Of a stretch of 32,128 nucleotides of DNA, positions 26,189-27,305 are shown piece after piece. The notes under the pieces were generated by a model. That model did not search any database and had not been told where the DNA came from. It saw only the letters and a program-made list of their open reading frames with translations. Source of the DNA: Planctomycetota bacterium (GTDB lineage Bacteria > Planctomycetota > Phycisphaerae > Sedimentisphaerales > Anaerohalosphaeraceae); the NCBI GenBank assembly GCA_021160785.1, contig JAGHBX010000282.1:1-32128 (forward strand), written 5' to 3'. The number at the start of each line of letters is the position of its first letter. Within the stretch, counting starts at the first letter, position 1. A program made the translations under genes and the position numbers.

Positions 26189-27077
26189 AACCGTTTACGC
26201 TGTTGATAAAGCCTTCCGGTTCGGACTGCAATATCGATTGCAGATACTGCTTCTACAAGCACCGCAGCCCGGATGCCGGCAAGGGCAGGCAGCGGATGAG
26301 CGATGAGGTGCTCGAAAAGCTCGTTGCCGATTATATGCAGACGGGCTTTGATGTTGTCGGGTTCGCGTGGCAAGGGGGCGAGCCGACGCTGATGGGACTG
26401 GATTTCTTCAAAAGGGCGGTCGAGTTGCAGATCAAATACGGCACGACCGCTCAGCAGATAAGCAATAAGATTCAGACCAACGGCATTTTGCTCGATGAAA
26501 AATGGTGCCGGTTTTTCCATGACAAGAAATTCCTGTTAGGTATAAGCATCGACGGGCCGGAAAAGTTTCATAATGTTTATCGTGTCGAACATGCGGACGA
26601 GATGTTCGATTTTCTTGTACAGAACGATCTGACTTATGTGTAGTCTTCGACCTGTGGTGCAATCACGGCCCCGACAAGATGAACATTCGACAGTTCGATT
26701 CGCTGGTGACGTATCATGTCTTAGGCAATCACACGATGTGCACCTTCAGCAGTCAGTGCGCAGGTTTTGTCGTCGTTGAACATAACGGCGACGCTTACTG
26801 CTGCGAGTTCTTCGTAGAGCCTAAGTGGAAACTCGGTAACATCCTCGAAACGCCATTAGCCGAACTGGCTCAGAGCAAAACCAGGCGAACCTTCGCCCGC
26901 AACAAACAGAATATCTGCAACAAATGCCTCGTCTGCCGACATCTGGACTATTGCCGCGGCGGCTGTGTAAAAGACCGCACCCGACTCAACGAAGAACAAA
27001 GCCACTTTTGCGAAGGCTACAAACAGTTCTTCGACCACGCACTACCACGCATTCGGCAAATCGCCAACCAGATCCAA
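26185..27077 (+). pseudogene. Decayed anaerobic sulfatase-maturating enzyme (radical SAM, SPASM)
   Basis: From the TTG at 26185, which overlaps the GH2 stop, the protein reads [20 protein letters not shown] with the radical-SAM cysteines C15, C19 and C22 (CxxxCxxC), FAWQGGEPTLMGL, and IQTNGILLD, just as in anaerobic sulfatase maturases. After HNVYR about 36 family residues are missing, in frame (text resumes at VEHADEMFDFL). At 26640 a second gap of about 30 residues comes with a frame change: a TAG stops the first frame at 26641-26643, and VFDLWCNHGP resumes in another frame. The SPASM cysteines (CTFSSQC, YCCEF, ICNKCLVC, CRGGC) and the C-terminal HALPRIRQIANQIQ are intact. The intact enzyme would form formylglycine in sulfatases. 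No active product is expected from this copy. No sulfatase lies in the window. Confidence 0.85.
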
Positions 27078-27095
27078 AACAGCACTCTGACAAGA

Positions 27096-27305
27096 CACAC
27101 GCGGCAGGCGGAGAAGTACTGCATAGATATAATTATTCAAATCCATGCTGCGATTCATGCGCTGCATCGGGTGGCCGACAAGATCTTTATCAAACATATT
27201 GACCATTGCGTAAGAGACGCTTTCGCCGGTAAGTCAAAAAAGAAGACAGAAGAAAAAATAGACGAACTGATGAAAGTTATAAAAAATCTACACAAATTGA
27301 GTTGA
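27096..27305 (+). pseudogene. CsoR/FrmR-family metal repressor remnant, fused to the maturase end
   Basis: Following the maturase C-terminus without a stop, the same frame reads HTRQ, then AEKYCIDIIIQIHAAIHALH, then HIDHCVRDAF and EEKIDELMKVIKNLH. This is the second two-thirds of a CsoR/FrmR (DUF156) repressor, with the copper ligand pattern Cys (YCID), His and Cys (HIDHC). The usual N-terminal helix, with its RI-x-GQ-x-x-GI motif, is absent between HTRQ and AEKYC, and there is no separate start codon. CsoR proteins bind Cu(I) and release a promoter in front of a copper exporter; the YHS and CopA fragments that follow fit such a neighbour set. As it stands the repressor would only be made as a tail on the maturase piece. 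Exact junction somewhere in 27078-27116. Confidence 0.78.

What the first reader, a model, noticed from the sequence alone, without database searches (positions are those of the whole stretch)
26640..27305. One open frame joins a SPASM iron-sulfur domain to a CsoR-type copper sensor
The frame from 26640 runs without a stop through the maturase SPASM half (eight or more cysteines) and then into the metal-sensing CsoR part with its Cys-His-Cys ligands. A start at ATG 26679 would give a 208-residue protein. If expressed, it would be a new iron-sulfur/copper-sensor combination; more likely it is a deletion fusion.
Basis: partly seen in the sequence, partly recalled or inferred. Interest (0 to 1): 0.58.

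Follow-up and report, generated by a model that had tools for sequence, protein, structure and literature searches.

The report
Deletion-fused remains of two genes
The open frame that joins an iron-sulfur domain to a copper-sensor domain is really in the DNA, but it is most likely the accidental weld of two broken genes in a short stretch where a sulfatase-activating gene and a copper-resistance operon have been cut up by several deletions, so it is ordinary gene decay rather than a new protein.

Summary
The frame exists as described. 26640-27302 is open, and ATG 26679 gives 208 aa. It carries the eight SPASM cysteines of an anaerobic sulfatase maturase (anSME), then a Cys/His/Cys CsoR part. 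It is one piece of a debris field. The anSME's radical-SAM half lies just upstream in another frame (26185-26643). Against intact relatives the anSME has two internal losses: 36 codons, in frame, at about 26581-26600, and about 31 codons, frame-shifting, at about 26640. Maturase similarity runs to Lys159 (27116) and CsoR begins at Tyr160 (27117), without helix alpha1 and its DNA-binding RLXR motif. Behind CsoR lie the YHS end (27401-27538) and one 51-residue piece (27546-27698) of a YHS-CopA copper ATPase. No genome among 59 relatives or 397 of the class, and no plasmid record, spans the junction; the halves occur there as separate genes. No good start site for the fusion was seen. I conclude: a deletion-generated pseudogene fusion inside a decayed anSME + csoR-copA locus. 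The remaining maturase residues are as conserved as in intact relatives, so the deletions are recent, or (minority possibility) assembly errors in this 670-contig genome.

The parts
26185..26583 (+). anSME piece 1: N-terminal radical-SAM part (residues 1-133 of the ~388-residue relative); TTG in place of the usual ATG, overlapping the stop of the preceding GH2 gene
   Evidence: TIGR03942 180 bits; PDB 4k37 E 9e-36; 59% to G044 anSME
26581..26600 (+). junction of deletion 1: 36 codons missing, in frame; the exact base cannot be placed
   Evidence: alignment to intact anSMEs
26584..26640 (+). anSME piece 2 (VEHADEMFDFLVQNDLTY), relative's residues ~170-188
26637..26642 (+). junction of deletion 2: about 31 codons missing, shifts the frame; TAG at 26641-26643 ends the upstream frame
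26640..27116 (+). anSME piece 3: SPASM part to near the C-terminus (relative's residues 220-381 of 388)
   Evidence: 67% over 162 aligned positions to G044 anSME; SPASM Pfam
27114..27119 (+). junction of deletion 3 (the fusion point): maturase Lys159 next to CsoR Tyr160, in frame
27117..27305 (+). csoR remnant: codons ~33 to the end, helices alpha2-alpha3 with Cys/His/Cys; first ~32 codons missing
27401..27538 (+). copA remnant 1: start codon and N-terminal YHS domain
   Evidence: Pfam YHS 53.5 bits; 40-45% to the YHS ends of intact CopA proteins
27536..27546 (+). junction of deletion 4: about 490-520 codons of copA missing, frame-shifting
27546..27698 (+). copA remnant 2: 51-residue piece of the cytoplasmic ATPase part (VGNRKL...VADPIK)
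   Evidence: 73% to a CopA of the class; PDB 3rfu LpCopA residues 506-558
27699..27833 (+). end of the debris: rest of copA (about 175 codons) missing before the next intact gene
22367..26188 (+). intact flank: GH2 beta-galactosidase-type gene
   Evidence: Pfam; 77% to G014 over nearly the whole length
27834..30254 (+). intact flank: 806-aa protein without Pfam match, conserved in relatives

Best explanation
The frame is a chance in-frame join made by a deletion. A former stretch with an anaerobic sulfatase maturase gene and, further on, a csoR-copA copper-resistance operon has lost most of its length through about five deletions: two inside the maturase, one from the maturase end into csoR, two in copA. 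The weld at 27116/27117 drops the last ~7 codons of the maturase, whatever lay between, and the first ~32 codons of csoR; one deletion in three would keep frame. Any product should have neither maturase activity (its radical-SAM half is in another frame and itself gapped) nor CsoR repressor activity (helix alpha1 with the RLXR motif is gone). Shown: the anatomy, the segments missing relative to intact homologues, and the absence of the junction elsewhere. Inferred: that the deletions happened in the living genome, their order, and the lack of function.
For: Collinear anSME pieces with 36- and 31-column gaps against 31 intact maturases. Radical-SAM half upstream in another frame. CsoR signal confined to residues 160-221, model positions 33-91 of 93. 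YHS and a 51-residue CopA piece in different frames just downstream; intact YHS-CopA of ~780 aa in other genomes of the class. Junction in none of 59 relatives, 397 class genomes or the plasmid records; CsoR stands alone as 93-101-aa frames. No start before ATG 26679, which has no Shine-Dalgarno-like sequence in front; promoter-like matches at chance level. Both flanking genes intact.
Against: The surviving maturase residues show no substitution decay: 89 of 94 near-invariant positions kept, against 89-93% in its nearest intact relatives; apart from the junctions no frameshifts or stops were seen. Five deletions within about 1.1 kb with intact flanks is a lot. Both facts fit recent deletions but also fit an assembly error. 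The frame is open and in phase through both domains.
Confidence: 0.8

Rival explanations
1. Assembly artefact: the maturase, csoR and copA are intact in the organism, and the assembly of this fragmented genome skipped segments or merged strain variants.
For: 670-contig genome, 89% complete, 4.3% contamination; remnants show no substitution decay; several gaps clustered in one place.
Against: The rest of the contig reads as intact genes. No second CsoR, and no second YHS/CopA of this type, was found elsewhere in the genome as orphan fragments. Several independent skips within 1.1 kb are not a usual assembly error.
Confidence: 0.13
2. A real, expressed SPASM-CsoR fusion protein that senses or stores metal.
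For: Open frame with both sets of cysteines; Pfam domains above cut-off.
Against: Unique to one genome; CsoR lacks alpha1 and the RLXR motif needed for operator binding (PMC3902906); no good start site; sits among other gene fragments.
Confidence: 0.03
3. Patchwork insertion: short pieces of foreign maturase and copper genes were captured between GH2 and the 806-aa gene, for example during break repair, rather than left over from deletions.
For: The maturase is closer to enzymes of another family of the order (61-67%) than to those of its own family (at most 57%); G014 has the IleRS-GH2 order with a different gene after GH2.
Against: The pieces keep the order and strand of their parent genes (three collinear anSME pieces; csoR, then YHS, then CopA), which successive deletions give for free and random capture does not.
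Confidence: 0.04

Closest known systems
Anaerobic sulfatase-maturating enzyme (anSME; TIGR03942; PDB 4K36)
   Same: Sequence of all three maturase pieces; SPASM cysteines; CxxxCxxC radical-SAM motif (CNIDCRYC) in the upstream piece
   Different: Split over two frames, two internal gaps, C-terminal end replaced by CsoR
CsoR copper-sensing repressor (PF02583; PDB 4ADZ, 4M1P)
   Same: Helices alpha2-alpha3, Cys-His-Cys ligands
   Different: First ~32 residues (alpha1, RLXR DNA-contact motif) missing and replaced by maturase sequence
Copper P1B-ATPase CopA with N-terminal YHS domain (LpCopA, PDB 3RFU, for the ATPase part)
   Same: YHS start and a 51-residue stretch before ...ADPIK
   Different: All membrane parts, the phosphorylation site and the C-terminus missing; the two pieces are in different frames
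Deletion-fusion pseudogenes in general (own knowledge)
   Same: Two unrelated truncated genes joined in frame by a deletion between intact neighbours
   Different: Nothing distinctive except the number of deletions in a short stretch

Membership tests
anSME (functional) | SPASM domain with eight cysteines | tested here: met
anSME (functional) | Radical-SAM domain with CxxxCxxC in the same polypeptide, full length (~380 aa) | tested here: not met
   N-terminal part is in another frame ending at 26643; 36 and 31 columns missing
CsoR (functional) | Cu(I) ligands X-Y-Z (Cys, His, Cys) | tested here: met
   KYC...KHIDHC; fingerprint in PMC5146963
CsoR (functional) | Helix alpha1 with the RLXR DNA-binding motif | tested here: not met
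   CsoR profile starts at position 33 in residues 160-221; residues 133-159 score 1.3 bits; role of RLXR in PMC3902906
CsoR (functional) | Tetramer formation and copper-released operator binding | not testable with these tools
   needs protein work
Deletion-fusion pseudogene | Both partners truncated relative to intact homologues | tested here: met
Deletion-fusion pseudogene | Junction absent from other genomes | tested here: met
Deletion-fusion pseudogene | Relaxed constraint (substitutions at conserved positions); expected with age, not required | tested here: not met
   89 of 94 near-invariant maturase positions kept; read as recent loss
Deletion-fusion pseudogene | Not expressed | not testable with these tools
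   no transcript or peptide data; no good start site seen

The most novel reading that the evidence does not exclude
The 208-aa SPASM-CsoR frame is translated and works in this one lineage as an iron-sulfur/copper-binding protein, with the C-terminal helix of the maturase (which by chance reads RIRQIANQI) taking the place of CsoR helix alpha1.
Probability: 0.02. Interest if true: 0.55.

Novelty: new member of a known kind. Interest (0 to 1): 0.08.

Why it matters
Mainly as a caution. Two curated Pfam domains above their cut-offs in one open frame can come from a deletion; this frame would enter a database as a two-domain metal protein, and its CsoR match is stretched over maturase sequence so that the missing helix is not obvious. 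As biology it records what looks like recent loss of a copper-efflux operon and a sulfatase-maturase copy in one bacterial lineage, probably Sedimentisphaerales (planctomycetes), the order of the nearest named match.

Tried and rejected
Fusion conserved elsewhere: searched in relatives, class, a GTDB pattern scan and plasmids; none. Truncated but functional CsoR from an internal start: helix alpha1 is absent, so rejected. CsoR alpha1 hidden in the maturase tail (Pfam and phmmer alignments reach back there): tested with a CsoR profile, 1.3 bits, rejected. Intact copies elsewhere in the genome: one intact anSME (contig C601, 56% identical to the SPASM part), no second CsoR, two other P-type ATPases with no detectable match to the CopA piece. 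Mobile element: only short, weak repeats in 26000-28000. Papers on a CsoR/radical-SAM fusion: nothing relevant. Not run: structure prediction, because few aligned sequences were permitted and the result would not decide the question. Exact microhomology at the junctions could not be settled, because the ancestral bases are unknown; relatives only hint at it.

Full report
What is there. The frame 26640-27302 is open and ends at TGA 27303. Its first usable start is ATG 26679 (208 aa); there is no in-frame ATG/GTG/TTG between the previous stop (TAA 26571) and that ATG. Pfam places SPASM and the CsoR family in the same frame, both above cut-off.

What the halves are. The SPASM part is the C-terminal end of an anaerobic sulfatase-maturating enzyme. 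It matches residues 220-381 of a 388-residue anSME from another genome of the order (G044) at 67% over 162 aligned positions, and the solved anSMEcpe structures. The N-terminal radical-SAM part of the same gene lies directly upstream, 26185-26643, in a different frame (TIGR03942 180 bits; PDB 4k37, E 9e-36). Aligned with 31 intact maturases, the pieces together lack 36 consecutive columns inside the upstream frame and 31 between the two frames. The first gap lies where relatives carry partly repeated words (GAC CAT and, 36 codons on, GAG/CAG/GGT CAT), which suggests deletion between short repeats. The second shifts frame.

The weld. Maturase similarity continues to Lys159 (RHTRQAEK here, RHTRSADK in G044), that is to 27116. 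CsoR similarity begins at Tyr160 (27117). A profile of relatives' CsoRs gives residues 160-221 62.0 bits at positions 33-91 of 93, and residues 133-159 only 1.3 bits. The Pfam and PDB alignments that start earlier are over-extended. This CsoR therefore lacks helix alpha1, where the RLXR motif contacts the operator (Streptomyces CsoR, PMC3902906), while the Cu(I) ligand positions X-Y-Z (PMC5146963) remain.

The surroundings. After csoR come the start and YHS domain of a copper ATPase (27401-27538) and, in another frame, 51 residues from its middle (27546-27698). Intact proteins of about 780 aa with YHS near the N-terminus and this segment at about residues 530-630 exist in other genomes of the class; the rest is missing here. 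The gene before (GH2) and the gene after (806 aa) are intact. The IleRS-GH2 order is shared with G014, where a different gene follows GH2. So 26188-27834 is a 1.6-kb stretch of remnants in a contig that otherwise reads as intact genes.

Is the fusion anywhere else? No. In 59 relatives and 397 genomes of the class (only the best matches were listed) every listed match outside this genome covers either the maturase side (most ending by about residue 165; one match with a stop inside reaches 175) or the CsoR side (from about 133), in separate frames. The GTDB pattern scan returned one locus, ordinary anSMEs in a Sedimentisphaerales genome. In plasmids no record covers 80% of the query. Within this genome the only CsoR is this one.

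How it most likely arose. A deletion has a one-in-three chance of an in-frame join, and the neighbouring 1.1 kb shows four other deletions. The simplest account is progressive deletion of an anSME and a csoR-copA operon not under selection in this lineage. In five relatives with an intact csoR the neighbours are other metal-efflux or accessory genes rather than anSME, so the two parents were probably not functionally linked. The maturase remnant resembles those of another family of the order more than those of its own family, so the stretch may have been acquired; that is inference. The remaining maturase positions are as conserved as in intact relatives (89 of 94), so the deletions are recent or, less likely, were introduced in assembly: the genome has 670 contigs and reads could not be seen.

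Function. Shown: anatomy and missing parts. Inferred: little or no expression (no good start; promoter-like matches at chance level), no maturase activity, no copper-responsive repression. A functional SPASM-CsoR protein cannot be formally excluded without transcript or peptide data, but nothing found here favours it.

Noticed in passing
27834-30254: 806-aa protein with no Pfam or NCBIfam match, yet 54-68% identical to proteins in 8 of 59 related genomes over most of its length; an unannotated conserved family beside glycoside hydrolase genes.
   Followed up: partly
30241-32128: Open frame of at least 629 codons that runs off the contig end; not identified.
   Followed up: no
L066, L067, L034: In several genomes of the order anSME genes occur as two copies a few kb apart, with what look like sulfatase genes between or beside them (L066, L067) and a sugar-phosphate-isomerase-like gene after them; the window's remnant belongs to the first-copy type (C-terminus RHTRSADKIRLRIEK).
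   Followed up: partly
18200-26188: Gene order IleRS - (methionine-synthase-like gene) - GH2 beta-galactosidase; G014 shares IleRS-GH2 but lacks the gene between and has a different gene downstream.
   Followed up: partly
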